A stretch of 41,604 nucleotides of DNA from a virus, in the IMG/VR virus record IMGVR_UViG_3300005577_000014, positions 1-41,604 of that record; one strand, written 5' to 3'. Below the pieces are notes generated by a model. It was given only the letters and a program-made list of their open reading frames with translations. It ran no database searches and had not been told where the DNA came from. Positions within the stretch are counted from its first letter, which is position 1, and every line of letters starts with the position of its first letter. Both the position numbers and the translations under genes were made by a program. Positions 946 to 38,421 of the stretch are shown here, in pieces.

Positions 946-975
946 TTGACGAACTCGTTACATACGCCCCATAAT
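946..975 (+). promoter_or_regulatory. sigma70-type promoter P1 of the shared TTGACGA family
   Basis: The -35 box TTGACG is at 946-951 and the -10 box CATAAT at 970-975, 18 bases apart. Bases 949-958 form the palindrome ACGAACTCGT shared with four other promoters in this genome, a likely operator. The -10 box lies in the loop region of the terminator hairpin at 964-992, so upstream transcription would stop where this promoter begins. It would drive the genes from 1005 to 2764. Confidence 0.75.
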
Positions 976-992
976 AGGGGCGTTTTCTATTT
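964..992 (+). terminator. intrinsic terminator overlapping promoter P1
   Basis: A 7-base-pair stem, ACGCCCC (964-970) with GGGGCGT (977-983), closes a six-base ATAATA loop and is followed by a T-rich tract (TTTTCTATTT). It would end transcription from the upstream accessory genes. The left arm and loop overlap the -10 region of P1. Confidence 0.7.
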
Positions 993-1004
993 GGAGGATG
1001 TGAA

Positions 1005-1184
1005 ATGAAGATGCTGACGGAAGAGAAATTGCGCGAGTTGTTGGAAGGTGCATATGTGCGAGGTCGAGTTGATGAACAGCATGCGCAAGAGAAATACGCA
1101 GGCGGAGCGCTGGCTATTCAACGCGCACGAGAATATTTGACTGTTCATAGTCGTGTCATTGACCCAATCATTGCGGGGCTCTGA
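1005..1184 (+). CDS. hypothetical protein (59 aa)
   Basis: The ATG at 1005 has a strong ribosome binding site (GGAGG, 993-997) and is the first start downstream of promoter P1. The product is a charged, mostly helical protein (Glu/Arg-rich, residues 4-45) with a hydrophobic C-terminus. The next gene starts 2 bases after its stop. No family was recognised; an alternative start is the second Met at 1011. Confidence 0.7.
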   Translation: MKMLTEEKLRELLEGAYVRGRVDEQHAQEKYAGGALAIQRAREYLTVHSRVIDPIIAGL

Positions 1185-1186
1185 CC

Positions 1187-1546
1187 ATGATTGTCATAGT
1201 GTGTGGCGGGCGTGATTGGCGCGATGAAACCTATGTACATGCGCGGCTCAATGTGATTCATGCGACCAGCCCAATTACTGAAGTGCATCAAGGTGGGGCT
1301 AGGGGTGTGGATACAATGGCGCGCACCTGGGCAGAGCGCAAGGGTATTCCATGCTTTGAATATCGTGCTGAATGGAACGAGCACGGCAAGCGCGCCGGGC
1401 CGATTCGTAATTGTCGGATGCTTCTTACCGCACGTCCCGACGTGGTGATAGCTTTTCCTGGCGGAAGCGGGACTCGCCACATGATGAAGATCGCCAGCGA
1501 CGCGGATATCCACATCATCAATTTACAGAAAGGAATGACAAAATGA
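1187..1546 (+). CDS. DUF2493 / SLOG-family nucleotide-binding protein
   Basis: The 119-residue product matches the DUF2493 (YspA/cpYpsA-related SLOG) fold: an N-terminal beta strand ending in a glycine loop (VIVCGGRDWRD, residues 3-13), a central QGGARGVD motif near residue 40, and FPGGSGTRHM near residue 90, the PGGxGT phosphate-contact signature of the SLOG/LOG Rossmann-like superfamily. SLOG proteins bind or process nucleotides and nucleotide-derived signals; the exact ligand of the phage members is unknown. The stop overlaps the next start (ATGA). The family call is firm, the biological role open. Confidence 0.85.
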   Translation: MIVIVCGGRDWRDETYVHARLNVIHATSPITEVHQGGARGVDTMARTWAERKGIPCFEYRAEWNEHGKRAGPIRNCRMLLTARPDVVIAFPGGSGTRHMMKIASDADIHIINLQKGMTK

Positions 1547-1725
1547 GCAATTTTCGCCGCAGTTTTAAAAGCAAGCGCACAGACGAAAAATACATAATTG
1601 AATTTGACATTGATGAGGACAGTTTGCATTTACAAGTTGCGCAAAAATGTCGCAGTAACAAAAGTGGCAAAGCATCGTTTATGCATGGTTCTATTAAAGC
1701 CAAGCTTATTAAGGTTCCGCAATGA
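1543..1725 (+). CDS. hypothetical protein (60 aa)
   Basis: The start at 1543 overlaps the previous stop (ATGA) and has a purine-rich ribosome binding site (GAAAGGA) upstream. The frame is open further upstream, but that part is antiparallel noise over the DUF2493 gene. The product is very basic at both ends (SFKSKRTDEK at the N-terminus, Lys-rich C-terminus) with a central acidic strand. A small nucleic-acid-associated protein is possible, but nothing specific is recognised. Confidence 0.65.
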   Translation: MSNFRRSFKSKRTDEKYIIEFDIDEDSLHLQVAQKCRSNKSGKASFMHGSIKAKLIKVPQ

Positions 1726-1913
1726 GCCGCATCGAACTGGTACGCATGAGCGAGCGCGAAGGCCGTTGCTTCTTCATGCCGACCAACAAACCGGCGCAGA
1801 AGATCATCATTAAAGAAACAGGTGAACCGCTGGCCTGCATCGGTGATGAATGGTCCCGCGTTGACATGCTGGGCATCCCGGCTAACTGTACATTGGAGAT
1901 TTATTTCAAATGA
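1722..1913 (+). CDS. hypothetical protein (63 aa)
   Basis: The start overlaps the preceding stop by four bases (ATGA), the usual coupling in this cluster. The product looks like a small beta-rich protein with a basic centre (NKPAQKIIIKETGEP). It is coupled to its 3' neighbour by another ATGA overlap at 1910. Function unknown. Confidence 0.65.
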   Translation: MSRIELVRMSEREGRCFFMPTNKPAQKIIIKETGEPLACIGDEWSRVDMLGIPANCTLEIYFK

Positions 1914-2128
1914 AAGTATCTGATTGGTTTCCTAGCGACGTGAAGCCGGTTCGCAAAGGTTGGTATTTTGTGTCAATTGGGATTACACAATTTGAAGGTT
2001 GGGCATATTGGCATGGTGAAAGATGGGGAGGTATTAATAGGCAAAAAGTTTGCCCTGCTTTTGAACCTTCGCCACGTTCTGACATATCGTTTCTCCAAAG
2101 CAAACGATGGAAAGGGATGTTGAAATGA
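1910..2128 (+). CDS. hypothetical protein (72 aa), Trp-rich
   Basis: The product is aromatic-rich (several Trp and Tyr) and begins with DWFPSDVKPVRKGWYFVS. This resembles the short phage/prophage proteins that open with 'W..P...P...G.Y' (DUF551-like), a family of unknown function common in enterobacterial prophages; the similarity is judged by eye and is weak. Its start and stop both overlap the neighbours. Confidence 0.65.
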   Translation: MKVSDWFPSDVKPVRKGWYFVSIGITQFEGWAYWHGERWGGINRQKVCPAFEPSPRSDISFLQSKRWKGMLK

Positions 2129-2484
2129 ACCATACTTATCAAATGAACGCGTGGCGATTTGATGATGGAAGCTACATCGTTGCGCCCCGCTTTGGCTTTA
2201 CCTATGACATCCCCTGGATGGCTCCGCACGCATCTGGTCGGCTGCTTGATAGTGCGATCAGGCACTATCAAATGGGATGCAGTGTGGATGCTGCGCACAA
2301 GGTTACGCCAAGCCGGAACAAGCGAGAAGGGCGATATGTTGGACGGTGGCAAGGGCTTGCGTATCGCAGCAGGGCGGAAGATACGGCATTCGATGAAATG
2401 TGTGCGCGTATCCGCTTGTACAATCATTTCAAATACGCACGGTACAACAAACCGGTGCAAGTGAATAAAAAGGTGAGAGGATGA
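2125..2484 (+). CDS. hypothetical protein (119 aa)
   Basis: The start chosen is the ATG at 2125, which overlaps the previous stop (ATGA) and follows AAAGGGA; an in-frame start 18 bases upstream is less likely. The protein is basic (many Arg and Lys, residues 60-119) with scattered Tyr. The basic charge would suit DNA or RNA contact, but no motif supports that. It overlaps the next gene by four bases. Confidence 0.65.
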   Translation: MNHTYQMNAWRFDDGSYIVAPRFGFTYDIPWMAPHASGRLLDSAIRHYQMGCSVDAAHKVTPSRNKREGRYVGRWQGLAYRSRAEDTAFDEMCARIRLYNHFKYARYNKPVQVNKKVRG

Positions 2485-2764: not shown

Positions 2765-2765
2765 C

Positions 2766-2780: not shown

Positions 2781-2789
2781 AAAAAGCAT

Positions 2790-2812: not shown

Positions 2813-2826
2813 CTCGGGGATACTAC

Positions 2827-5226
2827 ATGCAACAGAGAACATTGCGCGAAGCCCTAGGGGGCATGGCGCAGATTCCTCAATTCTTCATATGGCACCTGAC
2901 TTGGAATGATGCTGAAGCCAAGTTCAACAAGCTGCCATTTACCAATGACCATAGCGCACAGAACCCGGCAAACTGGATGACTTACGATGCCGCCGTGCAG
3001 CGCTTGCAAGAATGCCGCGCACAGTGGCCGCAGAACTATTTCACGCTTGGCTTTTATATTACCCGTGCATGTGGTTACTGGTTTCTCGATGTGGACAAAT
3101 GCATTGATCGTGTGTCCGGTCAGTGGAACGCCGTAGCCACATGGCTGTATCAGAATTTGAATGGCGCAGCGTGCGAAATATCCAGTAGCGGCAACGGTGT
3201 TCACTTCTTTGGTCGTGATGTGCTGACGAATGCACGCGCAATTAAGCCGAAGGGGACAGGACTCGAACTGTATGACGATGGGCGCGGTGTTGCCTTTGGT
3301 CTGTCAGATATTGCCTTTGGCAGTGCCGACACGTCGCACAGTGCAGCCATGCATAACTTCATCATCCCATCGTACTTCCCGCAATCGAGCGAGAGCGCAG
3401 AGGATGGCGCGTATATCTTCCCTGAAGAACGCGACCCAACTTGGCGCGGCCCGGAAGATGACGATGAATTGCTTGCCATGGCGATGCGCTCACAGTCAGC
3501 ACAAGCGGCGATGCAAGAGGGAGACCCCCATAAGTTTGCAAATCTGTTCACCGGCAACATGGATGTGCTCCACAAGGCTTATGTGGATGGTGCTGGTAAT
3601 TACGATGCATCTGGCGCCGATTTTGCGCTTGCCTCGATGCTGGCTTTCTGGACGGGCAAAGATGGCCCGCGCATGGAACGCCTGATGCGCCGTAGCGCGC
3701 TGATGCGTGGCAAGTGGGACTCTCACGCCACGTACCTTAAGAAGTTCACCATTGCCCGCGCTTGTGGTCGTACCAATGCAGTGCTCCAGACCAAAGAGAT
3801 TGAGAGCACTGAGACGATTGATGAGTCCAAGGAAATTGACGGCTCTACGTTCTTGGGACCGGATGCCCAGCGCGAACTATTCAAGGGCTGTGTCTATGTG
3901 GCCGACATCGATAAGGTGTTTGTCCCGTTCACCAAGGGTGGATACCAGTTGATGAAATCTAAAGTGTTCAACGCATGGTTTGCTAATTACAAGTTCGTGA
4001 TGGACAAGGCCAACACGCAAATGGCGAAGAGCCCCTTTGACGCGTTCACGGGCTCAACGCTGGTTAAATTCCCCAAGGTGCAATCGGCTGTGTTCATGCC
4101 CAGCGAAGAGCCGGGCAAGGTCATGTATGTGGATGGCGTGAGCGTGGTTAATCAATACGTGCCGTTCCCGATCCGTCGCGTGAAGGGTGATGTAACACCG
4201 TTCCTCAATCACGTAGCAAAGCTGTTCCCGCATCCCCACGATTATGCGGTCATCATTAATTATGCGGCGGCATGCGTGCAGTATCCGGGGAAGAAATTTA
4301 TGTGGTGCCCGGTTATTCAGGGCGTGCAGGGCAACGGCAAATCAACGATTGGTAATTGCATTGCTTACGCTGTTGGTCGGCAATTTGTCTACACACCTAG
4401 CGTTGAGGATTTGAGCAGTAAATTTAACGGTTGGCTGTACGGTAATTTGTTCATCTTGGCTAACGACGTTAAATTACCGCGTGGTGGCGATGCGCTTGAA
4501 ATATTGAAGCCCATGATTACTGAGCAATTTCAGCGTGTGGAAGCCAAGCGACAGGATCAAGGGATGAAGCGTATTTGCTGCAATTTTCTTTTCACGATGA
4601 ACCGTAAAAGTGGCATCCAGAAAGAAGACAACGAACGTCGTTATGCAATCTTCTTCACCCCGCAACAGGAAGAGCGCGACCTTGAGCGCGACGGATTAAC
4701 CAGTGGTTATTTCCGCCAACTGAATGAATGGCTGGATAGGGATGGCTATGCGCTTGTGGCCGAATACTTGGCAACTTTCCCCATCGCGGACGAATACAAC
4801 CCGGCCAAGAGCCTGACACGGGCTCCTGTCACTAGCACTGAAGAACAAGTTGTCGAGGCTTCACGCGGAACGCTGGACGACGAAATCCGTGAAGCAATTA
4901 GCGAAGGTCGGCCAGGATTTAACAACGGCTGGATTTGCTGGCAACGATTAAAGAAATTGCGTGATGAATTAAATTACAGCCGTATGCCATTGCCACAGTT
5001 GGAGGAAATAATTAAGCGGCTTGGTTATATTCCTCACCCTGGCTTGGCGACTAAAGGTTTAACGCATTGTCGAGTATTTGCTGAAGACAATAAGCAAGTA
5101 AGGCTGTACGTCGTTAAAAATCATCCGACAATTTATGAGCAATTAACGCACTCACAAATTGCTGAACGTTATTGTAATGAGCAGTTGGCGGGCAGTAATT
5201 TGCCAGCAGTTGCTGTTCATCATTGA
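2827..5226 (+). CDS. primase-polymerase/helicase (AEP N-terminus plus DUF5906-like helicase)
   Basis: The 799-residue protein starts at the ATG at 2827, 6 bases after the ribosome binding site GGGGA; the in-frame extension to 2797 lies inside the terminator. The N-terminal half carries the archaeo-eukaryotic primase motifs: FLDVDKC (D88, D90), SSGNGVHFFG (H126) and GLELYDDGRG (about 145-154). The middle has a Walker A loop GVQGNGKST (499-507) and a hydrophobic Walker B-like strand (NLFILAND, about 540) of an SF3/DUF5906-type helicase. The same domain order occurs in the NrS-1-type phage primase-polymerase. It should prime and unwind at the origin, supporting the family B polymerase encoded at 28527-30419. 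The candidate origin lies directly downstream. Confidence 0.88.
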   Translation: MQQRTLREALGGMAQIPQFFIWHLTWNDAEAKFNKLPFTNDHSAQNPANWMTYDAAVQRLQECRAQWPQNYFTLGFYITRACGYWFLDVDKCIDRVSGQWNAVATWLYQNLNGAACEISSSGNGVHFFGRDVLTNARAIKPKGTGLELYDDGRGVAFGLSDIAFGSADTSHSAAMHNFIIPSYFPQSSESAEDGAYIFPEERDPTWRGPEDDDELLAMAMRSQSAQAAMQEGDPHKFANLFTGNMDVLHKAYVDGAGNYDASGADFALASMLAFWTGKDGPRMERLMRRSALMRGKWDSHATYLKKFTIARACGRTNAVLQTKEIESTETIDESKEIDGSTFLGPDAQRELFKGCVYVADIDKVFVPFTKGGYQLMKSKVFNAWFANYKFVMDKANTQMAKSPFDAFTGSTLVKFPKVQSAVFMPSEEPGKVMYVDGVSVVNQYVPFPIRRVKGDVTPFLNHVAKLFPHPHDYAVIINYAAACVQYPGKKFMWCPVIQGVQGNGKSTIGNCIAYAVGRQFVYTPSVEDLSSKFNGWLYGNLFILANDVKLPRGGDALEILKPMITEQFQRVEAKRQDQGMKRICCNFLFTMNRKSGIQKEDNERRYAIFFTPQQEERDLERDGLTSGYFRQLNEWLDRDGYALVAEYLATFPIADEYNPAKSLTRAPVTSTEEQVVEASRGTLDDEIREAISEGRPGFNNGWICWQRLKKLRDELNYSRMPLPQLEEIIKRLGYIPHPGLATKGLTHCRVFAEDNKQVRLYVVKNHPTIYEQLTHSQIAERYCNEQLAGSNLPAVAVHH

Positions 5227-5440
5227 TATTTAGCAAATTAGTACGTTGTCAAAAATACAAGAGTCGCTCCCAGCCTGCCTCTCCTCTCTTTACTACTATA
5301 TATTTACTAATATTATTAATATACATATATACATACTATACAGAGGGAGGGGGAGCGGTGGGAGCGGGAGAGAGCTGGATACACAGAGCAAGTAATAAAA
5401 AGTAAATAGTAGTAAATAATTAGCGAAGGATTTTTAGTAA
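5227..5440. other. gene-free origin-like or packaging-site-like element
   Basis: There is no credible gene. A pyrimidine arm (5265-5288) and a purine arm (5343-5366) are inverted with respect to each other, with 8 perfect base pairs at the outer end and 16 of 24 identical overall. They flank a 54-base almost pure A/T core (5289-5342). Short GTAAATA-like repeats follow at 5391-5442. An AT-rich unwinding core, inverted arms and short repeats next to the primase gene suggest a replication origin; the adjoining terminase genes make a pac or cos site an alternative. Confidence 0.6.
5345..5368 (+). other. potential G-quadruplex motif
   Basis: Four G-tracts are spaced G3-N1-G5-N6-G3-N3-G3 (5345-5347, 5349-5353, 5360-5362, 5366-5368), satisfying the usual G3+N1-7 rule. 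They lie in the purine arm of the origin-like element. GGGAGCGG also occurs twice here as a direct repeat. Confidence 0.6.
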
Positions 5441-6226: not shown

Positions 6227-6255
6227 TTGACGAACTCGTTACTTAGGTCTATTAT
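6227..6255 (+). promoter_or_regulatory. sigma70-type promoter P2 of the shared family
   Basis: TTGACG (6227-6232), 17-base spacer and TATTAT (6250-6255) make the best consensus promoter of the family. The operator-like palindrome ACGAACTCGT is at 6230-6239. It starts three bases after the small terminase stop and drives the 65-residue gene at 6288. Confidence 0.85.
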
Positions 6256-6287: not shown

Positions 6288-6485
6288 ATGAACGAAGCAA
6301 TTGCAACCGCTTTCCGCAACTTGTATAGCGTTTCTAATGGTGCCGACCTTGTTGGATTTGTCACGGAAAGTTGTGCAGAAAAAGCCGCCATCAAATATCG
6401 TCAAAATGGCGGAAATTCAACTGATCCGACAATTAAACAAATGACTTTCGGTTACCCTGAAGATGTGTGCAATATTTGGGGTTGA
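6288..6485 (+). CDS. hypothetical protein (65 aa)
   Basis: The ATG follows AGGAG by six bases. The product is a soluble small protein with no recognisable family. It has its own promoter (P2), and its stop codon TGA is part of the -35 box of the next promoter (P3). Having a dedicated regulated promoter inside the packaging region suggests an early or accessory function rather than a structural one. Confidence 0.7.
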   Translation: MNEAIATAFRNLYSVSNGADLVGFVTESCAEKAAIKYRQNGGNSTDPTIKQMTFGYPEDVCNIWG

Positions 6486-6510
6486 CGAACTCGTTACTTA
6501 GGCGTAGAGT
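6482..6510 (+). promoter_or_regulatory. sigma70-type promoter P3 of the shared family
   Basis: TTGACG (6482-6487), 17-base spacer and TAGAGT (6505-6510). The palindrome ACGAACTCGT is at 6485-6494. The stop codon of the preceding gene lies within the -35 box. P3 and P4 (38393) share the same -10 and most of the spacer. Confidence 0.8.
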
Positions 6511-6539: not shown

Positions 6540-7073
6540 ATGCAAACCACACTGAATCAAATCCGCGCCAAATTTCCCTGCAAATCTGGATGGGAAAAAC
6601 TGTTGCGCTACTTGGGCAAAACCCAAGCTGACGACGAACCTATCAACATTGCAACCATCATTGATAGTAACGGGCTGGATGATGCAATTTGGTCATTGCG
6701 CGCCGTAGAAGGTCATGACAAAGAAATCCGCTTGTTCGCTGTGTTTTGTGCGCGGCAAGTTGAACATTTGATGACCGATGAGCGCAGCAAAGCGGCACTT
6801 GTTGCGGCAGAAGATTACGCAAACGGGCGAATCGATAAAACCCAACTCGATGCCGCCGCCGATGCCGCCGATGCCGCCTATGCCGATGCCGCCGCCGATG
6901 CCGCCGCCGATGCCGCCTATGCCGCCGCCGCCTATGCCGCCGCCTATGCCGCCGCCTATGCCGCCGCCGATGCCGCCGCCGATGCCGCCGCCGATGCCGC
7001 CGCCGATGCCGCCTATGCCCGTGGCGCACAAGAGAAAGAATTGCGCCGCATTTGCGCAAAGTGTTATAGTTAA
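6540..7073 (+). CDS. hypothetical protein with Asp/Ala/Tyr repeat tract (177 aa)
   Basis: The ATG follows GGGAGG by nine bases, behind promoter P3. Residues 1-100 are an ordinary globular-looking, mostly helical domain. Residues 104-160 are only Asp, Ala and Tyr in units of DAA, DAAA or YAAA, followed by a short charged C-terminus with two Cys. The repeat should form an Ala-rich helix with Asp or Tyr every third or fourth position. Proteins ending in such repeats occur in other phages and prophages, but I know of no function for them. Other frames of the repeat give long Pro/Met and Gly/Ile shadows that are not genes. Confidence 0.75.
   Translation: MQTTLNQIRAKFPCKSGWEKLLRYLGKTQADDEPINIATIIDSNGLDDAIWSLRAVEGHDKEIRLFAVFCARQVEHLMTDERSKAALVAAEDYANGRIDKTQLDAAADAADAAYADAAADAAADAAYAAAAYAAAYAAAYAAADAAADAAADAAADAAYARGAQEKELRRICAKCYS
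6849..7019 (+). repeat. trinucleotide-based coding repeat (GAT/TAT/GCC)
   Basis: Fifty-seven consecutive codons use only GAT, TAT and GCC, arranged as 9- and 12-base units. There is no synonymous variation at any Ala codon, which points to recent expansion by slippage or recombination. All units are multiples of three, so length changes keep the frame. Confidence 0.9.
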
Positions 7074-7310
7074 ATCGTTGTTTGACAGGCGCATACCAAA
7101 GCGCTAATTGTCCCGGTAATGCGCTCCTGGGGAATGCAGTAGCGCCAACGAACCAAAGAGGCATGATATGTGACAGTCTGAGTTAAAACTGATGACACAC
7201 TTGCTAAACTTCGGAGCAAGAGAGTAACGCCCCTGTGCAGTGGATGACACAGGGGCGTTTTTCATTGTGCGTTACAATTCACGGCATCAACACTAACCAA
7301 TGCGTTACAG
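7074..7310 (+). other. 237-base untranslated stretch, possible small RNA or leader
   Basis: No coding frame is convincing. TTGACA at 7082-7087 is a possible -35 box, but the matching -10 (TAATTG, 7105) is weak. A small hairpin CTTGCT/AGCAAG (7200-7220) is followed by the strong terminator at 7227-7263. A short transcript ending at that terminator, or a long leader of the terminase operon, are both possible. Confidence 0.35.
7227..7263 (+). terminator. strong intrinsic terminator
   Basis: An 11-base-pair stem, ACGCCCCTGTG (7227-7237) with CACAGGGGCGT (7248-7258), has a 10-base loop and is followed by TTTTT. It insulates the late structural genes from the upstream regulated genes. TACAAT at 7273-7278 could be the -10 of a late promoter, but no -35 box is seen. 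Confidence 0.9.
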
Positions 7311-28206: not shown

Positions 28207-28530
28207 TCATTCTGGATCAGATATACCGGGGCGCATGTTAGTTTTTCCAAACATAGCCTTGTGCCAATTCAAGCAAGCCGCAGCAGTGGTTATTATGTGA
28301 TGTTCGGCCTTGACTGTATTGCCTGATATTTGCGCATGTAGAGCTTTACCGGCGAGATAGCCTATTAGCCAAAACCAATCAGATGGCTGTTTGCCGCTAT
28401 CGTGAGAGTTTCCCCACCGCTGACGTTGGTGTTCTGCTTCAGTACTAACAGCGAATAAAAAATTATCAAATTGTGGTGTATTTATAATTGCATTTAATCT
28501 TGCAATTTCTTTGTCTTTATCATCATTCAT
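28207..28530 (-). CDS. MazG-like / nucleotide pyrophosphohydrolase-like protein
   Basis: This 107-residue minus-strand protein overlaps the polymerase stop by four bases (ATGA). It contains HQRQRWGNSHDSGKQPSDWF, WLIGYLAGKALHAQ and KAEHHIITTAAACLNWH, a pattern common in phage small proteins and reminiscent of the all-alpha MazG/dNTP pyrophosphohydrolase fold (E...H...D...H positions). A dNTP-pool role next to a DNA polymerase would make sense. The family assignment is tentative. Confidence 0.5.
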   Translation of the reverse strand: MNDDKDKEIARLNAIINTPQFDNFLFAVSTEAEHQRQRWGNSHDSGKQPSDWFWLIGYLAGKALHAQISGNTVKAEHHIITTAAACLNWHKAMFGKTNMRPGISDPE

Positions 28531-30419
28531 GCTGTTACCCCTAGTGAATTCAAAATATCCCGCGCCTTTTGCACGTAGCGCGAGCGGTCTAAATCGAGCG
28601 GTAGATAATCAACCAAGTCCATCATAGGAATTGCATTCTCTGACTCGCTTACCTTATTGCCTGACTTCTTTGCGTGGATTGCCACGCTGCTGACCGCTGA
28701 GTAATACCAGCGCACCATCTTTCCCAAGTCTTGACCGTTCCACGTCGCGCCGCCTGTGACGTTGCGGGCCACAATGAACTTGCGGATATCACTGCATGCC
28801 TTGATCGTGTCTTCAACTGGTATACCTGTTCGCAGATTAGCAATTGCCGCCTCTGTGGAAATCCTGGCGCTGGGGTCTTTCGTCAATGTCACATCACCGA
28901 ACACGCCCTTAGCCTTGTAACTGCCATCGCGCTTGAATGCCACGTAATTATTAACGTCACGCGAGAAAATAGCCGCATAGTCCGTTTCTTCAGTCTCAAG
29001 TCTAGTTACCCCTTCCCACCACTTCAAAATGCCCGCCACGGTGTTCTCTTGCTGTCGTTGGTAGCGCAAAACGATGCCGTCAGTATTGGCGCTGATAACT
29101 TGGATGCCTTGCAGTTCCATTGCCTCAATCAGCATCAACAGCGACAATTGTCCTGTGAGCGTAACGGTCAGCATCAATTCTGGTGCGAACAGAATTGAAT
29201 ACTTGGAGCCCAATTTGCCGTAAGTACCGTTAAGCAAAATCTTGCCGCCACCTTCGAGGTTTTTTAAGCGTTCTACTTCTTTCTTCAACGCCTCGTTGCC
29301 GGGTTGCGCATCGAGTAGCTTTTTAACCTTGGGCAGTTTTTCTTTTGCATCGAGGCGAGCGCGGTATTCTTCGCGGTAAATTGCCAGGAATTCAGGACCC
29401 AACTGTTCCGGATACAAGCCTAAATTCAAAATCAGCGAGGGGTAGAACGATTTAACGTCGCGGTCCTTGAGCAACCAATTACCAACAGCATAAAAGAACT
29501 GCTTTGATTCGGTCGAGTGCAAACCGCCAATGCGCATCGTATATGTGCCGTTATTAATCTTCACTTTTAGATTGCGCAATTCCTTTGGAATGATGATGCC
29601 GGTCTTGATCGGTTCCCCGTTGTCATCAACTGAGTCAGGTTCAACTTGATCTTTGTCGCTCACAGTGAAAACGCAGGCTTTGACAAGTTCCAACACGTCG
29701 CACATGTATTGCGTTTGGAATTGGATGAACGGCGGCGGTTCATATTTAAATTGATAGCCGTGTTGCACATAGCGTTTGTTATTTCCGATACGTGTTTTAA
29801 ATATTGCTTCAGCGATTTGCGCATCTGATTTGCTGCGCATGTCAACGCCGTATTTTTCGCTCAGTGCTTCCCGCATATCAAGCGCGCCTTGTATCTTTGC
29901 GCGCAATTGATCGGTATTCTTCAAGTCCTTGACGTTGTATGTAGAAATGAGGCGTCTGCGCTCAGGTGTGGCAATCAATTCGTGAGGCTCGATGGGCAAA
30001 TCTTGAAGGTTGCGACATGCCATACGTGCGCCGTATTTCTTCAGACTGATGCGCACGCCTGGAGCCACTTCGCTGATATCTACTGTATCAATAAACGGTA
30101 GCTTTTGAATGCCGAAATGATCGTAGAAATGCCAGTGCTTCAAATTACCAACGATGATTGCATCACTGGCTTGTTTCAGTGTGGCGCAGTTAGCTCCTTG
30201 CAAGGCAAGATTGAGCATCGGTTCATCGTAATTGATACCGTTGAACGTGATAAGCGTGTGTCGCTGCAATAGCCACACGATGGCGTCAATGTCGAGTTGC
30301 CTGCCTGGGTACATTTCAAATTGGTACACCAAGTCTGTCACAGGATCAAGAAAGCCTATCATCCAATAATCGTGGTAGCACTCGGTGTCCGCGCTGAGAA
30401 ATTTTTCACGCGATAGCAT
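28527..30419 (-). CDS. family B DNA polymerase with 3'-5' exonuclease
   Basis: The 630-residue protein starts after AGGAC. Exonuclease motifs are ADTEC (D11, E13), ITFNGINYDEPML (N60, D65) and YNVKD (D165). Polymerase motif A is DVKSFYPSLI (D321), motif B KILLNGTYGKLG (K393, N397, Y400, G401) and motif C SANTDGIV (N445-T446-D447). Motif C has Asn instead of the usual first Asp of DTD. The protein is short for the family but all core motifs are present. It replicates the genome together with the primase-helicase and ssDNA-binding protein. A terminator-like hairpin lies between it and the preceding SSB-like gene. Confidence 0.9.
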   Translation of the reverse strand: MLSREKFLSADTECYHDYWMIGFLDPVTDLVYQFEMYPGRQLDIDAIVWLLQRHTLITFNGINYDEPMLNLALQGANCATLKQASDAIIVGNLKHWHFYDHFGIQKLPFIDTVDISEVAPGVRISLKKYGARMACRNLQDLPIEPHELIATPERRRLISTYNVKDLKNTDQLRAKIQGALDMREALSEKYGVDMRSKSDAQIAEAIFKTRIGNNKRYVQHGYQFKYEPPPFIQFQTQYMCDVLELVKACVFTVSDKDQVEPDSVDDNGEPIKTGIIIPKELRNLKVKINNGTYTMRIGGLHSTESKQFFYAVGNWLLKDRDVKSFYPSLILNLGLYPEQLGPEFLAIYREEYRARLDAKEKLPKVKKLLDAQPGNEALKKEVERLKNLEGGGKILLNGTYGKLGSKYSILFAPELMLTVTLTGQLSLLMLIEAMELQGIQVISANTDGIVLRYQRQQENTVAGILKWWEGVTRLETEETDYAAIFSRDVNNYVAFKRDGSYKAKGVFGDVTLTKDPSARISTEAAIANLRTGIPVEDTIKACSDIRKFIVARNVTGGATWNGQDLGKMVRWYYSAVSSVAIHAKKSGNKVSESENAIPMMDLVDYLPLDLDRSRYVQKARDILNSLGVTA

Positions 30420-30432
30420 GTTGTGTCCTCAT

Positions 30433-30457
30433 GAAAAAACCGGGCGCGAGGCCCGGT
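30433..30457 (-). terminator. intrinsic terminator/attenuator between SSB-like and polymerase genes
   Basis: On the minus strand ACCGGGC (30457-30451) pairs with GCCCGGT (30445-30439) across CTCGC, followed by six T. It lies inside one operon, so partial termination would keep the polymerase message below that of the ssDNA-binding protein. Confidence 0.85.
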
Positions 30458-30477
30458 CAAGTTAAGCCGTTACCAGC

Positions 30478-31494
30478 TTAGATAATAACGCCAGATGCGC
30501 GCAACTGGTCATCGGTATAGCCCTGCGACTTCCATTGCTCATAAGTGAAACCTTGCGCGTTCGGCCCCATCTGCGGCGCGGTAGGGATAGCGGGCGGTGT
30601 GAGCGCTGGTGGCGCAACAGGTTGCATCGCATTGGCAACAAAGCCCGGATTCGGAACAATGGGCGCTTGTTGCGGTGCCGGTACGCCTGGGGCGGGCATA
30701 TGCGGCGCGGCCACAGGAGCAGGCATCGGAACACCTTGCATTGCTTGGGCAGCAGGAACACCAACAGGAGCGCCACCCGGCAAAGGCGGGGCAATCGTAC
30801 CCGGCATTGCAGGCGGCATCATTGCGCCCGGTGTTGGCATCGGTGCAGACATGCCGCCAATCGGAACAGGTGATGCGCCAGCGGGCAGCGGTGCTTTGCC
30901 GAAACCGATTTGCGACGGGTCAGGCCCGCGAGTAATCTCCGGGCCGTAACCTTGCAACGAGACAAAGTCATGGTTGTAATACAGGCCGGGCTTCTGCGCG
31001 TTCTCGTTGCTCTTCAGGCTTGCTTGCACCTGCACGTAATAACCCGGTTTCACAGCGTTAGCTTCCAACAGGTACGCGGAACCGTCGTTATTGATGATAC
31101 GCGGTGCGATATTGCGACCAAAGAAGATGACCCAATGGCCGGGATAACCCTCTTGATCTTTTGGCATTTTCATATTTTGATTCGGGATAGCCGAATCACC
31201 GTCAATCACTTTCCAAGCGAAGTCTGGGCGCTGGATCATGTTGCCCCAAACTTGGTGCGCAAACTGGTGAATCTGTTGCCCCCACGGTTCGTTATACCAA
31301 GCGGCTTGCGTCTTGGGGAACGCGACTCCGATGCTGTAATCAACCTTGGGTTGATCCTTGTTCTTGCCACTCTTGTACACCAGCGGATTACCTTGCATGT
31401 CCTTGGTACGCGGTTCGTACAGGTTGGATGAAACCAAGCGGCCAGTGGGGAAAAGGATGTTGAGATATTTGTCTTGAGTTGCAGCTTGTGTCAT
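30478..31494 (-). CDS. single-stranded DNA-binding protein-like (DUF2815-like)
   Basis: The 338-residue protein starts MTQAATQDKYLNILFPTGRL, with an OB-fold-like N-terminal domain (about 1-195, Trp and Tyr-rich, ending ITRGPDPSQIGFGKA). A long Pro/Ala/Gly/Met-rich linker (about 198-305) follows and a short C-terminus that has an acidic pair but is not the acidic tip of bacterial SSB. Genes of this type are regularly next to DUF2800 nuclease and DNA polymerase in phages, as here. The start overlaps the DUF2800 stop. Confidence 0.75.
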   Translation of the reverse strand: MTQAATQDKYLNILFPTGRLVSSNLYEPRTKDMQGNPLVYKSGKNKDQPKVDYSIGVAFPKTQAAWYNEPWGQQIHQFAHQVWGNMIQRPDFAWKVIDGDSAIPNQNMKMPKDQEGYPGHWVIFFGRNIAPRIINNDGSAYLLEANAVKPGYYVQVQASLKSNENAQKPGLYYNHDFVSLQGYGPEITRGPDPSQIGFGKAPLPAGASPVPIGGMSAPMPTPGAMMPPAMPGTIAPPLPGGAPVGVPAAQAMQGVPMPAPVAAPHMPAPGVPAPQQAPIVPNPGFVANAMQPVAPPALTPPAIPTAPQMGPNAQGFTYEQWKSQGYTDDQLRASGVII

Positions 31495-32609
31495 GACTTG
31501 TTTGCTCCAAAAATTTTGCGGGTTGTTTTGGTATTTAAAGGGGCAACAACCAACTCCCCTGTCGGTTTCTCTGCGTATTTGCTAACCAGTTCTGGCGGTA
31601 GTATCTCCCTAGCCTGACGCGGCGTAATGAGTTCAATGTCTTTGATAATCGATTTGCCCATCAACGCGGCAACGCCGGTCAACGCCTGGGCCGCGCCGTC
31701 TTTCCATCGCTCGCGTGTTCCTTTGCGTTCCAACGTGTGTTTCGGCGCAACGTTACCCGCCAACAGACCGTGTTCAATTTCAACAGTAAGACCTGAGCGG
31801 CGCGCATCCAGAATTGCGATAGCTTCGTCCAACATAGCCAATTCATTAGAAGCTGCCCATGTGGACAACTCAATCGGCGCTGGTGCAGTTGAAACGGCTA
31901 TGCCGTAATAGCTGGACTTTTGCAAAGCGTTGCACTTTCCGCGTGCGCTACAATGCGTGCATGCAATTGGATCGACATTCAACGGTGCGTTTTGCTCAAG
32001 CGCATATTCTCCGGCCATGCGCAACTTGTTGATGTGTGCGCGCAAATCAGAAAGCTTCACGCGCCATGTGTAGAACGGTCCATCAGCTTTGTACAAACGC
32101 GGCTGATAGATCGTCATTTCTACCCAAATGTGTTGATCGTGTGAACCATCAACACCCAACAAAGTTGCGATACCAGACACATAGCAAATCAGCTGCTTAT
32201 TTTCAAACACGTCAACCGGTATGCGGCCAAATTTTCCATCGAGCAGATGAATGGTGTATGTAGCTGCGTTCCATGCCCACACGTCAGGGGTTCCCCCGCA
32301 TTCGGTTGGATGAATGTCGGGTATGGGCATGGGCCGTTCTACGTACAACGGGATTCCCCAAGACGCTGCGAACCGGTGATATTCCGCTACGGTCTTGTGC
32401 ATTTCTTCCGTTATAACCACGTCGTCACGAACGATTGACCCAATTGGCGTCAACGGCTGGCCCGTCAAAGAAGACTTGGCTAAATCGTGCCACGCCAAGC
32501 CTTCTTTAGTGTCGGAATCATCCCATTGCGGGTAACGTTCGCGCATTGCCAAGGAGCCATAACAGCGGCCCCATGAGTCTGCCGAACTAGGACGAAGCCG
32601 CCACGCCAT
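31491..32609 (-). CDS. DUF2800 / RecB-like nuclease (PD-(D/E)XK)
   Basis: The 372-residue protein begins WRLRPSSADSWGRCYGS and carries the RecB-nuclease pattern: EGLAWHD (E37, H41), GGTPDVW (D109), LLDGKFG (D124, K126) and a Gln/Lys segment (about 138-140). A Cys cluster ACTHCSARGKCNAL could hold an iron-sulphur cluster as in Cas4/AddB-type nucleases. It probably acts as a DNA exonuclease in recombination or replication. It stands between the unknown gene 32612 and the SSB-like gene, all overlapping. Confidence 0.82.
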   Translation of the reverse strand: MAWRLRPSSADSWGRCYGSLAMRERYPQWDDSDTKEGLAWHDLAKSSLTGQPLTPIGSIVRDDVVITEEMHKTVAEYHRFAASWGIPLYVERPMPIPDIHPTECGGTPDVWAWNAATYTIHLLDGKFGRIPVDVFENKQLICYVSGIATLLGVDGSHDQHIWVEMTIYQPRLYKADGPFYTWRVKLSDLRAHINKLRMAGEYALEQNAPLNVDPIACTHCSARGKCNALQKSSYYGIAVSTAPAPIELSTWAASNELAMLDEAIAILDARRSGLTVEIEHGLLAGNVAPKHTLERKGTRERWKDGAAQALTGVAALMGKSIIKDIELITPRQAREILPPELVSKYAEKPTGELVVAPLNTKTTRKIFGANKS

Positions 32610-32611
32610 GA

Positions 32612-33418
32612 TTAGCCGCCCGATGCCAAGCGTTGATACTTCGCGCCATAGGCATCATTGAACTTGGCGGCAAAGGTTTGCAGCAATTGTTCGCTGTACT
32701 GGATATCGGTGATTTGTTGCAGACCCATCGATGTCAGCACGCCGGACACGTCAGCGTCTTCCATGATGCCAGCCGGGTTAGCCGGGGACTTCATATACGC
32801 GCCCAGGTTTTCCATCAGTTGCACGTAAGCGGGCAGCGGCGGTTGCGGGGCAGGCGCGGGCGCAGCGGCAAGAGTGGGCAGCGGCGGGGGCAGCATCGGT
32901 GCCAGGGTCGGCGCAGGAGCGGAAGCAGCGGGCGGCAAGGTTGCCGGGTTGTTGACTGCGACGGATGCAGGCGGTTGCGCTCCGCTATTCACCAGGGCGC
33001 GCAATTCAGATGCGCGCTTGGCGGCAAGAGTCTTATCGACACCGCGCTTTGCGCGCCATACGCCCTTCGTAGTAACTTGCGCAGGATCGCTGTGGATATC
33101 CTTGCTATACGGCGTACCTTCGCTGTCCAATTGCTGACCATTGACCAGCTTGGGCCATTCGCCAGAAGTGGAAAGGAACGCGCTTTCTTGTTCGGTGTTG
33201 CCACCAGCGGCAGGATTGTCAACCGGGGGAATCACGCCGCCCAATGCGGGAGGGGTCATGGTGACATTGGCGGTAACATGCGCGGGCATTTCATTTTGCA
33301 CGCTGACGGTACGTGCTGCGCCGAAGAATTCGGGGCCGTACACAGATTCAATCACCTTGCGCATCATTTGGCGCGTTGCGTTGTCGTCGGTGTGGCTGAT
33401 GATGAGTTTTACGGACAT
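32612..33418 (-). CDS. hypothetical replication-operon leader protein (268 aa)
   Basis: The start is the ATG at 33418, nine bases after GGAG; an in-frame TTG five codons upstream is part of that ribosome binding site. The product has an N-terminal globular domain (about 1-60), a conserved-looking GVWRAKRGVDKTLAAKRASEL segment, then a Pro/Ala-rich linker (about 155-205) like that in the SSB-like protein, and a C-terminal helical domain. It is the first gene of the minus-strand replication operon. No family was recognised. Confidence 0.7.
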   Translation of the reverse strand: MSVKLIISHTDDNATRQMMRKVIESVYGPEFFGAARTVSVQNEMPAHVTANVTMTPPALGGVIPPVDNPAAGGNTEQESAFLSTSGEWPKLVNGQQLDSEGTPYSKDIHSDPAQVTTKGVWRAKRGVDKTLAAKRASELRALVNSGAQPPASVAVNNPATLPPAASAPAPTLAPMLPPPLPTLAAAPAPAPQPPLPAYVQLMENLGAYMKSPANPAGIMEDADVSGVLTSMGLQQITDIQYSEQLLQTFAAKFNDAYGAKYQRLASGG

Positions 33419-33463
33419 TGCTAAATTCTCCAATTGGTTAATTAACGGGTACTGCTGGAACGA

Positions 33464-33492
33464 AGTATGTGCGATAATAACGAAGTCGTCAA
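33464..33492 (-). promoter_or_regulatory. minus-strand promoter P5 of the shared family
   Basis: On the minus strand TTGACG (33492-33487), 17-base spacer and CATACT (33469-33464). The palindrome ACGA-CT-TCGT lies at 33489-33480. It drives the replication operon and sits only 17 bases before the preferred helicase start, so the two divergent genes can share one operator. Confidence 0.75.
33470..33478 (+). promoter_or_regulatory. candidate extended -10 for the helicase gene
   Basis: TGC followed by GATAAT is an extended -10 element on the plus strand, with no clear -35. A start at about 33485 would leave a short leader before the ATG at 33509. It overlaps the P5 spacer. Confidence 0.4.
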
Positions 33493-33508: not shown

Positions 33509-35203
33509 ATGAAACTGCGCAATTATCAAGAACACATAGAACAAGAAACTTACGCGGCTTGGCAAGCGGGACATCAAAACGTCATGGCCGCGCTTGCTAC
33601 TGGTGGCGGGAAAACTCCAATCATTGGGAAAATTGCTGATTCGGTTGATGGTGTTGGGTTGGCGTTCGCTCACCGAAATGAGTTAGTAGGGCAATTGTCA
33701 GTGGCATTTGCCCGTTACGGCATTTATCACGATCTATTAGCGCCCCCTTCGTCGTCCGGCAAATTGCTACGTCGTAAATTGTCGGACTTGCATATGCGCA
33801 AAGTGGGACGCAATTTTATCAGTGATCGCGCCCGCTGGTATGTTGGCGGTGTGGATACCATCATTGGCTTGAAAGATGACCCGCGCTTGTCGCGTGTGCG
33901 CTTTGTTGTGCCAGATGAAGCGCACCACGTCTTAAAGGTGAACAAGTGGGGCAAGGCGATGCTCATGTTCCCCGGTGCGTTCGGATTCATGCCAACGGCA
34001 ACGCCGACACGCGCTGACAAGAAAGGGCTTGGACGCGAGTATGACGGATTGGCCGACGTGCTAATTGACGGACCACAAACGCGCTGGTTAATGGATCAAG
34101 GCTTTCTCGTTGACTATGAAGTGATTTGCCCTAAGACGACAGACCTTGATTTACACGAAGTCAATATCAGTGCGGACGGCGACTACAACCAAGTGCAATT
34201 GCGCAAGGCTGTCCACAAGTCTAAAAAGATTGTCGGTGACATCGTCCGCACTTATTTACAGTTCGTGCCGGGTAAAAAGGCTGTGTACTTTGCCGTTGAC
34301 GTTGAAGCCGCAAGTCTAATTGCCAACGGGTTTAAAGACGCTGGTGTGCCTGCTGAAGTCGTCAGCGCCAAAACTCCCGATGCGCTGCGTGATGAAATCA
34401 TGCGGCGTTATGAGAACAACGAAATTCGAGTGCTGGTCAACGTCGATCTGTTCGGGGAAGGTTTTGATTTGCCTGACGTTGACGTTGTGGGCATGGCTCG
34501 TCCTACGATGTCTTTCTCGCTCTATCGTCAGCAAGTGGGGCGCTCATTCCGGTTGAATATCTCCAAGGTTCTTGAGACAGCCTGGGACACGTACACGGTG
34601 TATCAACGTCTGCAATTCATCGCGCAGAGCAAAAAGCCAAAGGCGATCATCATTGACCATGTTGGCAATATAGAGCGCCACGGTCTGCCTGACGCACACA
34701 AGGAATTTTCGCTTGAGCCCGGAATGACCCGCGCACGCGGCGAACCGAACGATGAAATACCGATGCGCTCATGCCTCAATCCGATCTGCCTTAAGCCGTA
34801 TGAAAAGTATCTGACTGAATGCCCTTATTGCCACACGGAGCCGCCGTTGTCCGCTGTGCGCAGTAGCCCTGAAATGGTTGACGGCGACATGCACTTGCTA
34901 GACATGGATGCACTCAGGGCGATGCGTGCCGCTGTTCAAAAAGTGGACGGCCACGCATACATGCCAAAAGGTATTGCGCCAGGGTTGCAGGGAACAATCA
35001 TTGCGAAACATGTTGAGCGCCAGCACGCACAGAAAGCATTGCGCGACACAATTGCATTATGGGCCGGTAAGCACAACAAATATACGGATCGTGTCAATTA
35101 CAAGCGCTTTTATCTCACGTTCGGCCTGCAAGTGCTGGAAGCTATGGCGCTGGGAACAGAAGACGCAAACCGCTTGCGCGAAAAGATTGCAGCACGCATT
35201 TAG
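33509..35203 (+). CDS. DEAD/DEAH-box SF2 helicase
   Basis: The 564-residue protein begins MKLRNYQEHIEQETY, the usual Q-motif-like start. Walker A is ALATGGGKT (GKT 34-36), Walker B is DEAH (136-139), and helicase C-terminal motifs include FGEGFDLPDVDVVGM and RQQVGRSFR. A zinc ribbon (CLNPIC, CPYC) lies near residue 425-447. An in-frame ATG at 33467 (14 residues longer) has a better ribosome binding site, but would lie upstream of the candidate extended -10. It probably helps replication fork or recombination, divergent from the polymerase operon. Confidence 0.88.
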   Translation: MKLRNYQEHIEQETYAAWQAGHQNVMAALATGGGKTPIIGKIADSVDGVGLAFAHRNELVGQLSVAFARYGIYHDLLAPPSSSGKLLRRKLSDLHMRKVGRNFISDRARWYVGGVDTIIGLKDDPRLSRVRFVVPDEAHHVLKVNKWGKAMLMFPGAFGFMPTATPTRADKKGLGREYDGLADVLIDGPQTRWLMDQGFLVDYEVICPKTTDLDLHEVNISADGDYNQVQLRKAVHKSKKIVGDIVRTYLQFVPGKKAVYFAVDVEAASLIANGFKDAGVPAEVVSAKTPDALRDEIMRRYENNEIRVLVNVDLFGEGFDLPDVDVVGMARPTMSFSLYRQQVGRSFRLNISKVLETAWDTYTVYQRLQFIAQSKKPKAIIIDHVGNIERHGLPDAHKEFSLEPGMTRARGEPNDEIPMRSCLNPICLKPYEKYLTECPYCHTEPPLSAVRSSPEMVDGDMHLLDMDALRAMRAAVQKVDGHAYMPKGIAPGLQGTIIAKHVERQHAQKALRDTIALWAGKHNKYTDRVNYKRFYLTFGLQVLEAMALGTEDANRLREKIAARI

Positions 35204-36694: not shown

Positions 36695-36696
36695 AT

Positions 36697-37005
36697 ATGT
36701 CGCAACGAATTGGTAAAGACGCACGCAAGGAACAAATCCTAGAAGCCGCTGTTGTTGTGGCTCGCAAGGTGGGTTATGTCGCACTGACCCGCAAGCAAAT
36801 TGCTGATGCAGCCTGCATTTCCCAAGCGCTTGTTTCGCGCTACTTTGGAACGATGGAAAACGTCAAGGACGAAACCGTTAAGCGGGCCATCGCTAAGAGC
36901 GATCTAAAGATCATCAGCGAGGCTGTTGTACATCGTCACGCTGGCGCTCGCAAGTATGCACAAAAGGAAAAAGCAAAACTTCGCGCATACCTGGGGCTCG
37001 AATGA
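36697..37005 (+). CDS. TetR-type HTH DNA-binding protein, no ligand domain (102 aa)
   Basis: The ATG at 36697 follows AAAGGAATT. Residues 8-55 resemble a TetR_N domain: EQILEAAVVVARKVGYVAL, then the helix-turn-helix TRKQIADAACISQALVSRYF (31-50). Full TetR proteins have another roughly 130 residues for ligand binding; here only a basic tail (RHAGARKYAQKEKAKLR) follows. It could be a phage regulator of the shared promoters. It overlaps the next gene by four bases. Confidence 0.75.
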   Translation: MSQRIGKDARKEQILEAAVVVARKVGYVALTRKQIADAACISQALVSRYFGTMENVKDETVKRAIAKSDLKIISEAVVHRHAGARKYAQKEKAKLRAYLGLE

Positions 37006-37184
37006 ATCTGTTAGCGCTATTTCCAGAAATGCAAACGGCGCTAAGGGAAACGCTCACGAAAGAGCAACAACTTTTCGTGAGCCAGCATTACCCTAGCTTT
37101 TTAGACTTTATAAAAACGCCGCAAGGTACTGCCGCGATTCAGTTATTTATTGAAGAGTGGCAGAAACAAAAAGCCCCACAATGA
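37002..37184 (+). CDS. hypothetical protein (60 aa)
   Basis: Coupled by ATGA to the HTH gene, it encodes a helical protein starting MNLLALFPEMQTALRETLTK and ending in a Lys/Gln-rich tail. It is the last gene before the bidirectional terminator. Possible partner of the HTH protein by position only. Confidence 0.6.
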   Translation: MNLLALFPEMQTALRETLTKEQQLFVSQHYPSFLDFIKTPQGTAAIQLFIEEWQKQKAPQ

Positions 37185-37198
37185 AGCGGGGCTTTTTT
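37168..37198. terminator. bidirectional intrinsic terminator
   Basis: AAAAAGCCCC (37168-37177) pairs with GGGGCTTTTT (37188-37197) around a 10-base loop. It ends the plus-strand operon and, in the other direction, the minus-strand gene at 37200-38138. Confidence 0.9.
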
Positions 37199-37199
37199 A

Positions 37200-38138
37200 T
37201 TACGCTTTCACATTCACCGGATTAGCGGTTTGCGTACCGGTTGTCACTGCGCCAGTGTTACCGGCAATGATGTTGCTGTTAGTCGCATGTGCGATCTGTG
37301 TAACGTTGGCAAGGCCTGTTGCAATTTGAGACAACAGAATGAGTTGTTGCTGTTGTTGCTGTTGTTGCTGCAATTGGATTTGATTCTGGTTGACCGATTG
37401 GGTTACGTTCACTTCAACTTCGCGGCTACGTGCCGTCGCACGCTGTTCGGCCAATTGCGCTTCTGCTACGGCAAGCTGGCGCTGCAAGTTGGCATCGTTA
37501 ATCGATTGAATCAGCGCACGTGTTTTGTCGCCATCGTTGGTAACGACTTGGCTCAGAGCAAACGTGTTTTGAATGCTCTGTGTATTCACGCCAGCAATAG
37601 CAAGCGCATTAGCTGATGCAGCTTGTTCAACAGCGTCTTTTACTGCCGTTTCTGTGGCAACGATTGTCGCAGTTGCGTTAGCAACGTTTTGATTGATACC
37701 GGCGATGCCCTGCGTTGTGGATAACAGATTGGTATTAATTTGCTGCGTCAAATCACTTTGTACTCCAGCTAGCGCCAATTGCACTTGACTTTCTGCCAAA
37801 GGAATAGCGCCCTTGATATCGCCAAGAGTTTGCAGCACGGCGTTATTTTGATTTGCCTCAATGATTCCATTTGTAGCGGTTTGCAGTTGAGTAGGCGTCA
37901 CGAAGCCTTCGCCCGCGCCGTTGCGGCCAAAGAGACCGTTATTCCCAAGTAGCGCCCCACCAAGTACGCCGCCAAGTAGTCCGGCCCCAAGGCCAGCGCC
38001 CGCGCCAGCCCCTGCGCCGCCCCAACCGCCAGTACCAAGGAAAGGCATGATGCTTGCCATTGGGTTAGTGCCGGGCTCGAAAATGTTTTTGATGTGTACG
38101 GGGTCTGTCATTTCTGTTACCTCTTCATTAGTGTCCAT
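37200..38138 (-). CDS. glycine-zipper membrane protein with long coiled coil (312 aa)
   Basis: This lone minus-strand gene has a Gly/Ala/Leu-rich hydrophobic segment with GxxxG zipper spacing (about 40-66, GAGAGAGLGAGLLGGVLGG), then long amphipathic helices with heptad-like patterns (about 80-215) and an Ala/Gln-rich helix with a run of nine Gln (about 248-262). No enzyme signature is seen. The design resembles pore or DNA-pilot proteins, or a superinfection-exclusion membrane protein. An alternative start is residue 10, which has a better ribosome binding site (AGAGG). Confidence 0.7.
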   Translation of the reverse strand: MDTNEEVTEMTDPVHIKNIFEPGTNPMASIMPFLGTGGWGGAGAGAGAGLGAGLLGGVLGGALLGNNGLFGRNGAGEGFVTPTQLQTATNGIIEANQNNAVLQTLGDIKGAIPLAESQVQLALAGVQSDLTQQINTNLLSTTQGIAGINQNVANATATIVATETAVKDAVEQAASANALAIAGVNTQSIQNTFALSQVVTNDGDKTRALIQSINDANLQRQLAVAEAQLAEQRATARSREVEVNVTQSVNQNQIQLQQQQQQQQQLILLSQIATGLANVTQIAHATNSNIIAGNTGAVTTGTQTANPVNVKA

Positions 38139-38226
38139 AGGAAATTACCCTTTCCGTTACGCGTAAAATGCGCAACACATCCACGTTACACCCCTCGTCG
38201 TACTACAAAATAAAAGGTAGGACAAA
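38139..38226. other. divergent intergenic region with palindrome
   Basis: These 88 bases separate the minus-strand zipper gene from the plus-strand ribbon-helix-helix-like gene. They hold the 10-base perfect palindrome TTACGCGTAA at 38157-38166. I found no clear promoter pair, but both genes must start from here. Confidence 0.45.
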
Positions 38227-38412
38227 ATGAAACCTAAGAAAAAGCCGGGCCGCCCACGCATCAATACGGATCAGGAAACGCCAATGGATAACTACAACGC
38301 CCGTTTGACATCGAAGCAGGCGCGTAAGGCCAGGAGGATAGGTGGCGGCAACTTGTCTGCCGGACTCCGCAAGCTGATAGACGATAAAACTATTGACGAA
38401 CCCGTTACATAG
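38227..38412 (+). CDS. small ribbon-helix-helix-like DNA-binding protein (61 aa)
   Basis: The product starts KPKKKPGRPRINTDQE, an AT-hook-like basic arm, followed by YNARLTSKQARKARRIGGGN LSAGLRKLIDDKT, where a short strand and two helices fit the MetJ/Arc/CopG ribbon-helix-helix pattern (N-terminal strand about 22-27, helices 28-35 and 42-51). Its 3' end overlaps promoter P4, placing it close to a shared operator. It is the best candidate for the repressor of the shared promoters. Confidence 0.7.
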   Translation: MKPKKKPGRPRINTDQETPMDNYNARLTSKQARKARRIGGGNLSAGLRKLIDDKTIDEPVT

Positions 38413-38421
38413 GCGTAGAGT
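38393..38421 (+). promoter_or_regulatory. sigma70-type promoter P4 of the shared family
   Basis: TTGACG (38393-38398), 17-base spacer and TAGAGT (38416-38421). The palindrome is imperfect (ACGAACCCGT, 38396-38405). It overlaps the end of the ribbon-helix-helix-like gene and drives the genes from 38445. Confidence 0.8.

What the first reader, a model, noticed from the sequence alone, without database searches (positions are those of the whole stretch)
946..38421. Five promoters share TTGACGA and an ACGAnnTCGT palindrome: a candidate phage regulon
P1 (946), P2 (6227), P3 (6482), P4 (38393) and minus-strand P5 (33492) all carry TTGACGA followed by CGTTA within the spacer, with a palindrome ACGAnnTCGT between -35 and -10 (one mismatch in P4). 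P2-P4 also share GTTAC(A/T)TAGG further in. A dimeric repressor bound there would block RNA polymerase at all five. They control accessory genes in three places and the replication operon, so one switch could govern most non-virion genes. I found no such motif in front of head or tail genes.
Basis: partly seen in the sequence, partly recalled or inferred. Interest (0 to 1): 0.8.

Follow-up and report, generated by a model that had tools for sequence, protein, structure and literature searches.

The report
Phage early promoters sharing repressor site
Five early-type promoters of this uncultured phage carry the same palindrome laid over the -35 box, and related phages that carry a similar small TetR-like DNA-binding protein often have matching palindromes in their own promoters, so one undescribed repressor probably switches off early genes across a wide group of bacterial viruses.

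Summary
TTGACGAnnnCGTTA occurs exactly five times in the 41.5-kb phage, at the five named places, against 0.009 expected; none of the other 38 TTGACG boxes has the right half. The short core ACGAnnTCGT alone is weak evidence. The dyad is a 16-bp element, TTGACG-N4-CGTTAC, whose left half is the -35 hexamer.

The best-supported binder is the 102-aa protein at 36697-37005: a TetR-type HTH domain without the usual ligand-binding half. The 61-aa protein at 38227-38412 is unlikely. Homologues of the TetR-like protein occur in many dwarf myoviruses and related phages. Many of these carry 2-12 intergenic copies of TTGACR-N4-YGTCAA on their own -35 boxes, one usually about 50 bp before the TetR-like gene. 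Searching from the motif side, 12 of 14 site-rich records carry the gene and 1 of 34 site-poor records does (p = 1.6e-8; many related). Ten helicase-sharing phages with no or only a weak homologue have no such promoter set. About ten phages have a strong homologue but not this palindrome, so specificity has diverged.

Likely mechanism: promoters fire on entry with host RNA polymerase, the protein accumulates, and it shuts them. Binding and repression are inferred. I found no earlier description in the papers searched.

The parts
946..975 (+). P1: operator-like dyad TTGACGAACTCGTTAC (946-961) on the -35 box; -10 CATAAT 970-975, spacer 18; leads to the accessory genes from 1005 on. The -10 lies inside a terminator-like hairpin (964-983).
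6227..6255 (+). P2: TTGACGAACTCGTTAC (6227-6242), -10 TATTAT 6250-6255, spacer 17; leads to the small ORF 6288-6485
6482..6510 (+). P3: TTGACGAACTCGTTAC (6482-6497), -10 TAGAGT 6505-6510, spacer 17; leads to ORF 6540-7073 (phrog_18326). A terminator-like hairpin near 7226-7262, seen by eye, separates it from the ORFs from 7311 on.
38393..38421 (+). P4: TTGACGAACCCGTTAC (38393-38408), -10 TAGAGT 38416-38421, spacer 17; leads to the small accessory ORFs from 38445 on, through the circular junction
33464..33492 (-). P5: TTGACGACTTCGTTAT (33492-33477, minus strand), -10 CATACT 33469-33464, spacer 17; leads to the replication operon 33433-28527 (exonuclease, Gp2.5-like SSB, DNA polymerase). The same palindrome overlaps the predicted start of the plus-strand helicase operon (extended -10 TGCGATAAT 33470-33478).
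36697..37005 (+). 102-aa TetR_N-type HTH protein without a C-terminal ligand domain; proposed binder of P1-P5. Recognition helix at residues 43-50.
33509..35203 (+). Helicase, first large gene of the plus-strand operon that carries the TetR-like gene; start 33509 preferred over 33467
28527..33433 (-). P5 operon: ORF 32612-33433, exonuclease 31491-32609 (phrog_69), SSB 30478-31494 (phrog_7011), DNA polymerase 28527-30419 (phrog_1252)
38227..38412 (+).

Best explanation
P1-P5 are sigma-70-type promoters whose -35 box doubles as the left half of a 16-bp operator (TTGACG-N4-CGTTAC). A dimer of the phage's 102-aa TetR-type HTH protein (36697-37005) binds the dyad and keeps host RNA polymerase off the -35 box and spacer. 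The promoters are near-consensus and unoccupied on entry, so accessory, replication and helicase genes are transcribed at once. The protein, made from the helicase operon, accumulates, closes all five promoters and, through the shared P5 site, probably its own operon. It lacks the ligand-binding half of ordinary TetR proteins, so the switch would be set by concentration, not by an inducer: an early-gene shut-off timer. Shown by computation: the five sites, their placement, the HTH domain, and the family-wide link between gene and operator. Inferred: binding, dimerisation, repression, timing.
For: Five sites against 0.009 expected. The protein has a TetR_N domain (8.5e-8; 15 of the 16 aligned proteins match it) and the AlphaFold2 model (mean pLDDT 88) has TetR-family proteins as its best PDB hits, aligned over the DNA-binding domain. 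Phages carrying the homologue have palindromes on their own -35 boxes: noncoding TTGACRNNNNYGTCAA with at most 1 mismatch, JD001 8, MSW-3 9, CP-T1 6, AAM22 9, Scuro 4, PhiPLPE 3, against control means of 0.10 or less. Motif-first test: 12 of 14 site-rich records carry the gene, 1 of 34 site-poor ones (Fisher p = 1.6e-8). In the 36-phage table no phage with two or more such noncoding sites lacks the gene (16 of 16), while ten helicase-sharing phages with no or only a weak homologue have none or one. PhiPLPE has the gene and the sites but no detectable homologue of the replication proteins tested, so the link does not ride on those genes. An operator centre lies 42-62 bp before the TetR-like gene in at least ten phages, as expected for autoregulation. 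In JD001 ten of ten intergenic sites near an annotated gene start precede a non-virion gene in the orientation that has the -10.
Against: No binding or transcript data. The window's right half (CGTTAC) differs from the family consensus (CGTCAA) at two positions, and no sequenced close relative of the window was found to test it directly. The window's own TetR-like gene has no operator just upstream. About ten phages with a strong homologue lack this palindrome set (PY6, AeroV_348, PD0307, VP16C, R9Y1, 1.009.O and CKB-S1 clearly; Psp6, B2 and SppYZU01 weak or different). A looser motif threshold (3 or more sites at up to 2 mismatches) gave no significant link to the gene (p = 0.26); the stricter cut was chosen after that. 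Many of the site-rich records are related (Jedunavirus-like), so p-values overstate independence. How a 102-aa protein dimerises is unknown.
Confidence: 0.7

Rival explanations
1. The 61-aa basic protein at 38227-38412, or another small phage protein, is the operator binder, and the TetR-like protein does something else.
For: Its gene ends inside P4, and it has basic, ribbon-helix-helix-like sequence by eye.
Against: No family match; a homologue in only one (PhiPLPE) of the 16 relatives with the palindrome set. The TetR-like gene is present in all 16 and often has an operator at its own promoter.
Confidence: 0.06
2. The motif is only a strong host-type promoter copied to several places (mosaic duplication); the palindrome is incidental and nothing binds it but RNA polymerase.
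For: P2 and P3 also share CATCGACAA downstream, so some copies may be duplicates. TTGACG is itself a near-consensus -35.
Against: Over 105 oriented sites from 16 phages the right half is far better conserved than the -10 (0.9-1.9 bits per base against at most 0.84, though sites were selected with that pattern). P5 keeps the dyad on the other strand with other flanks. Helicase-sharing phages without the TetR-like gene do not have the set.
Confidence: 0.12
3. The TetR-like protein binds the sites but serves lysogeny or superinfection immunity (a CI-like maintenance repressor), or activates transcription.
For: CP-T1 is recorded as from an induced lysogen; a repressor that closes all early promoters would also give immunity.
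Against: No integrase or CI-like protein among the window ORFs scanned. MSW-3, phiPLPE and 138 are described as lytic (PMC3587953, PMC3391216). A site over the -35 box favours repression over activation.
Confidence: 0.12

Closest known systems
RutR of E. coli (TetR family)
   Same: TetR-type HTH; an approximately 16-bp palindromic box at its own promoter and at other places (PMC10891134). From memory its consensus TTGACCAnnTGGTCAA resembles TTGACGAnnTCGTCAA in layout.
   Different: RutR is a full-length TetR-family protein that binds a small ligand and is a host metabolic regulator. The phage protein is 102 aa without a ligand domain.
tetR-like genes noted in the phiPLPE group of dwarf myoviruses (Comeau et al. 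2012, PMC3391216)
   Same: Same gene in phiPLPE and CP-T1, both tested here.
   Different: The paper only notes the gene and suggests the phages co-opted it; its text holds no mention of promoters or palindromes.
Multi-operator phage repressors (mycobacteriophage L1/L5 repressor; lambda CI and Cro)
   Same: One phage protein, several sites, early promoters.
   Different: L1 repressor sites are asymmetric and serve lysogeny (PMC1934351); CI and Cro have another HTH fold (from memory). The sites here are symmetric, lie on -35 boxes, and the DNA-binding domain is TetR-type.

Membership tests
TetR family of regulators (PF00440) | N-terminal TetR-type HTH domain | tested here: met
   PF00440 8.5e-8, over the curated cut-off; fold matches TetR DNA-binding domains
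TetR family of regulators (PF00440) | Larger C-terminal ligand-binding and dimerisation domain (about 200 aa in all) | tested here: not met
   102 aa; after the recognition helix only H53-66, H70-78 and H82-99; PDB relatives are about 186-406 aa. I therefore call it a TetR_N-domain protein, not a full TetR-family member.
TetR family of regulators (PF00440) | Palindromic operator near its own and its target promoters | tested here: met
   Met in relatives; in the window the targets are met, but the gene's own site is only the shared P5 site at the operon start (inconclusive there)
TetR family of regulators (PF00440) | Dimer binds the operator | not testable with these tools
   Needs purified protein
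Lysogeny repressor system (lambda or L5 type) | Integration or maintenance genes together with an immunity repressor | tested here: inconclusive
   No integrase or CI-like match among the window ORFs scanned, but not every small ORF was scanned

The most novel reading that the evidence does not exclude
A stand-alone TetR-type HTH protein without an inducer domain is a widespread, previously unrecognised early-gene timer of largely virulent dwarf myoviruses and related phages. Each lineage keeps a matched operator on its -35 boxes, and some lineages (PY6 and others) have switched to a different palindrome.
Probability: 0.45. Interest if true: 0.75.

Novelty: new variant of a known kind. Interest (0 to 1): 0.62.

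Why it matters
Many sequenced phages of Klebsiella, Vibrio, Edwardsiella, Acinetobacter, Pantoea and Pectobacterium carry this small gene annotated only as a TetR or transcriptional regulator. A defined operator turns it into a testable regulon, predicts which genes are early, and offers a compact inducer-free repressor with many natural operator variants for studying how recognition helix and site change together.

Tried and rejected
IMG/VR exact-pattern hits for the window's own form (L006-L018) look like chance matches: single copies without promoter context, and 0 of 13 records carry the TetR-like gene (the tool warns that an empty answer alone proves little). The search for related loci with the TetR-like protein found nothing, and with the helicase one distant locus, so no close relative was available. 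The bare core ACGAnnTCGT was rejected as evidence by itself. A phyletic test with a loose cut failed (p = 0.26) and is reported; the stricter cut gives 7.6e-4, or 0.025 without the motif-selected records. Tandem GC-rich repeats in phiPLPE, CP-T1 and 138, suggested as attachment sites (PMC3391216), are a different feature from the operators. No clean palindrome was found for VP16C, 1.009.O, PD0307, R9Y1 or AeroV_348. The two site-rich records without the gene (G006, 230 kb; G035, 69 kb) have no TetR_N match at all.

Full report
CHECK. The window is one virus record of 41,604 bases with a 100-base terminal overlap, so the map is circular. TTGACGAnnnCGTTA occurs exactly at 946+, 6227+, 6482+, 38393+ and 33492- and nowhere else; the reversed control pattern has no match. 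A third-order Markov model predicts 0.009 copies. The window has 43 TTGACG boxes; only these five carry CGTTA ten bases on. Each is followed by a -10-like hexamer at 17 or 18 bases. The short palindrome ACGAnnTCGT by itself is weak: with one mismatch it is at chance.

ANATOMY. The element is a 16-bp imperfect dyad, TTGACG-N4-CGTTAC; its left half is the -35 box and its right half lies in the spacer. P1 and P4 precede accessory genes, P2 and P3 precede single small genes between terS and the ORFs from 7311 on, and P5 precedes the replication operon (exonuclease phrog_69, Gp2.5-like SSB phrog_7011, DNA polymerase phrog_1252). The helicase most likely starts at 33509, not 33467, so P5 sits in a divergent gap of about 75 bases. 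On the plus strand an extended -10 (TGCGATAAT, 33470-33478) would place the helicase transcript start inside the P5 palindrome, so one site could control both operons, including the one that carries the TetR-like gene. Head and tail genes have no copy in front of them.

BINDER. ORF 36697-37005 encodes 102 aa with a TetR_N domain (8.5e-8; phrog_8723). AlphaFold2 (9-sequence alignment, mean pLDDT 88) gives six helices; the best PDB matches are TetR-family proteins aligned over their DNA-binding domains, though Foldseek E-values are only about 0.01 because often just some 65 residues align. The usual ligand domain is missing.

RELATIVES. tblastn finds homologues in 97 phage records. A seed search of noncoding DNA that did not use the window's motif found repeated promoter-like palindromes in many of them: JD001 TTGACGGACTCGTCAA, AAM22 TTGACGnnnTCGTCAA, MSW-3, CP-T1, Scuro TTGACAATAATGTCAT, PhiPLPE TTGACGTATnCGGCAA; B2 has a weaker TTGACATTTTTGTAAG. 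Counts of TTGACRNNNNYGTCAA in noncoding DNA exceed permuted-palindrome controls by far. In JD001 ten of ten intergenic sites near an annotated gene start precede a non-virion gene in the orientation that has the -10; one variant, TTGACGTGAnTGTCAA, recurs in several of these phages and in AAM22 lies before a baseplate gene, an exception to the rule that virion genes lack it. An operator centre lies 42-62 bases before the TetR-like gene in at least ten phages (SppYZU01, Scuro, JD001, MSW-3, CP-T1, G033, G044, G007, G014, G026), with PEAT2, ZCEC13 and LAPP1 at about 50 by comparing coordinates. In the Jedunavirus-like ones one half of that site is degenerate (TTGACCAC or TTGACCAT), which might make self-repression the last step; that is a guess.

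ASSOCIATION. Starting from the motif: 48 IMG/VR records over 15 kb that hold TTGACGRACTCGTCAA were counted for further sites and for the gene. With four or more sites 12 of 14 carry the gene; with three or fewer 1 of 34 (p = 1.6e-8). Starting from the helicase: ten phages with no or only a weak homologue have no exact site and at most one noncoding near-site, while PEAT2, ZCEC13 and LAPP1, which have a strong one, have 12-17 sites with up to one mismatch. Over 36 phages, 16 of 16 with two or more noncoding near-sites carry the gene; 10 of 20 without do (p = 7.6e-4; 0.025 without the eight motif-selected records). A looser cut gave p = 0.26. So the gene looks necessary for the set but not sufficient: phages with other recognition helices (PY6, PD0307, VP16C and others) do not carry it, and PY6 promoters carry GTAGCGC-palindromes in the spacer instead. 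PhiPLPE has gene and sites but none of the replication homologues tested. The 61-aa protein has a homologue in only one of the 16. Records are related, so these p-values are guides.

MECHANISM. Shown: sites, placement, HTH domain, co-occurrence. Inferred: a dimer binds, hides the -35 box and closes early promoters as it accumulates; no inducer is expected because no ligand domain is present.

LITERATURE. Comeau et al. 2012 (PMC3391216) noted tetR-like genes in phiPLPE, CP-T1 and 138 and guessed co-option; the text has no promoter or palindrome. Two recent Jedunavirus papers only list a transcriptional regulator (PMC12518310, PMC11672853). Nine paper searches found no description of this regulon; the library holds open-licence papers only.

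Noticed in passing
6848-7013: 12-bp tandem array CGATGCCGCCGC (13.8 copies) inside the P3-driven ORF 6540-7073; phiPLPE has a comparable (KMGCCG)35 array once guessed to be an attachment site (PMC3391216).
   Followed up: no
964-983: Terminator-like hairpin ACGCCCC-ATAATA-GGGGCGT-TTT that contains the P1 -10 box: promoter and terminator share the same bases.
   Followed up: no
L021:21424-21924, L019:38065-38565: The TetR-like proteins of Scuro and SppYZU01 are 166 aa with a second, degenerate N-terminal HTH match; G037 also shows two matches.
   Followed up: no
L022, sites 7110-, 19993+, 28189+: PY6 promoters carry a different palindrome, GTAGCGC-nn-GCGCTAC-like, in the spacer after TTGAC, although the phage has a TetR-like homologue.
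   Followed up: partly
L032:24859-24874, L026:90-105: A variant site TTGACGTGAnTGTCAA recurs in several Jedunavirus-like phages and in AAM22 lies before a baseplate gene, unlike most other sites.
   Followed up: partly
5223-5440: AT-rich intergenic tract with ATATATAC runs between the primase and terS genes; a possible origin or late control region.
   Followed up: no
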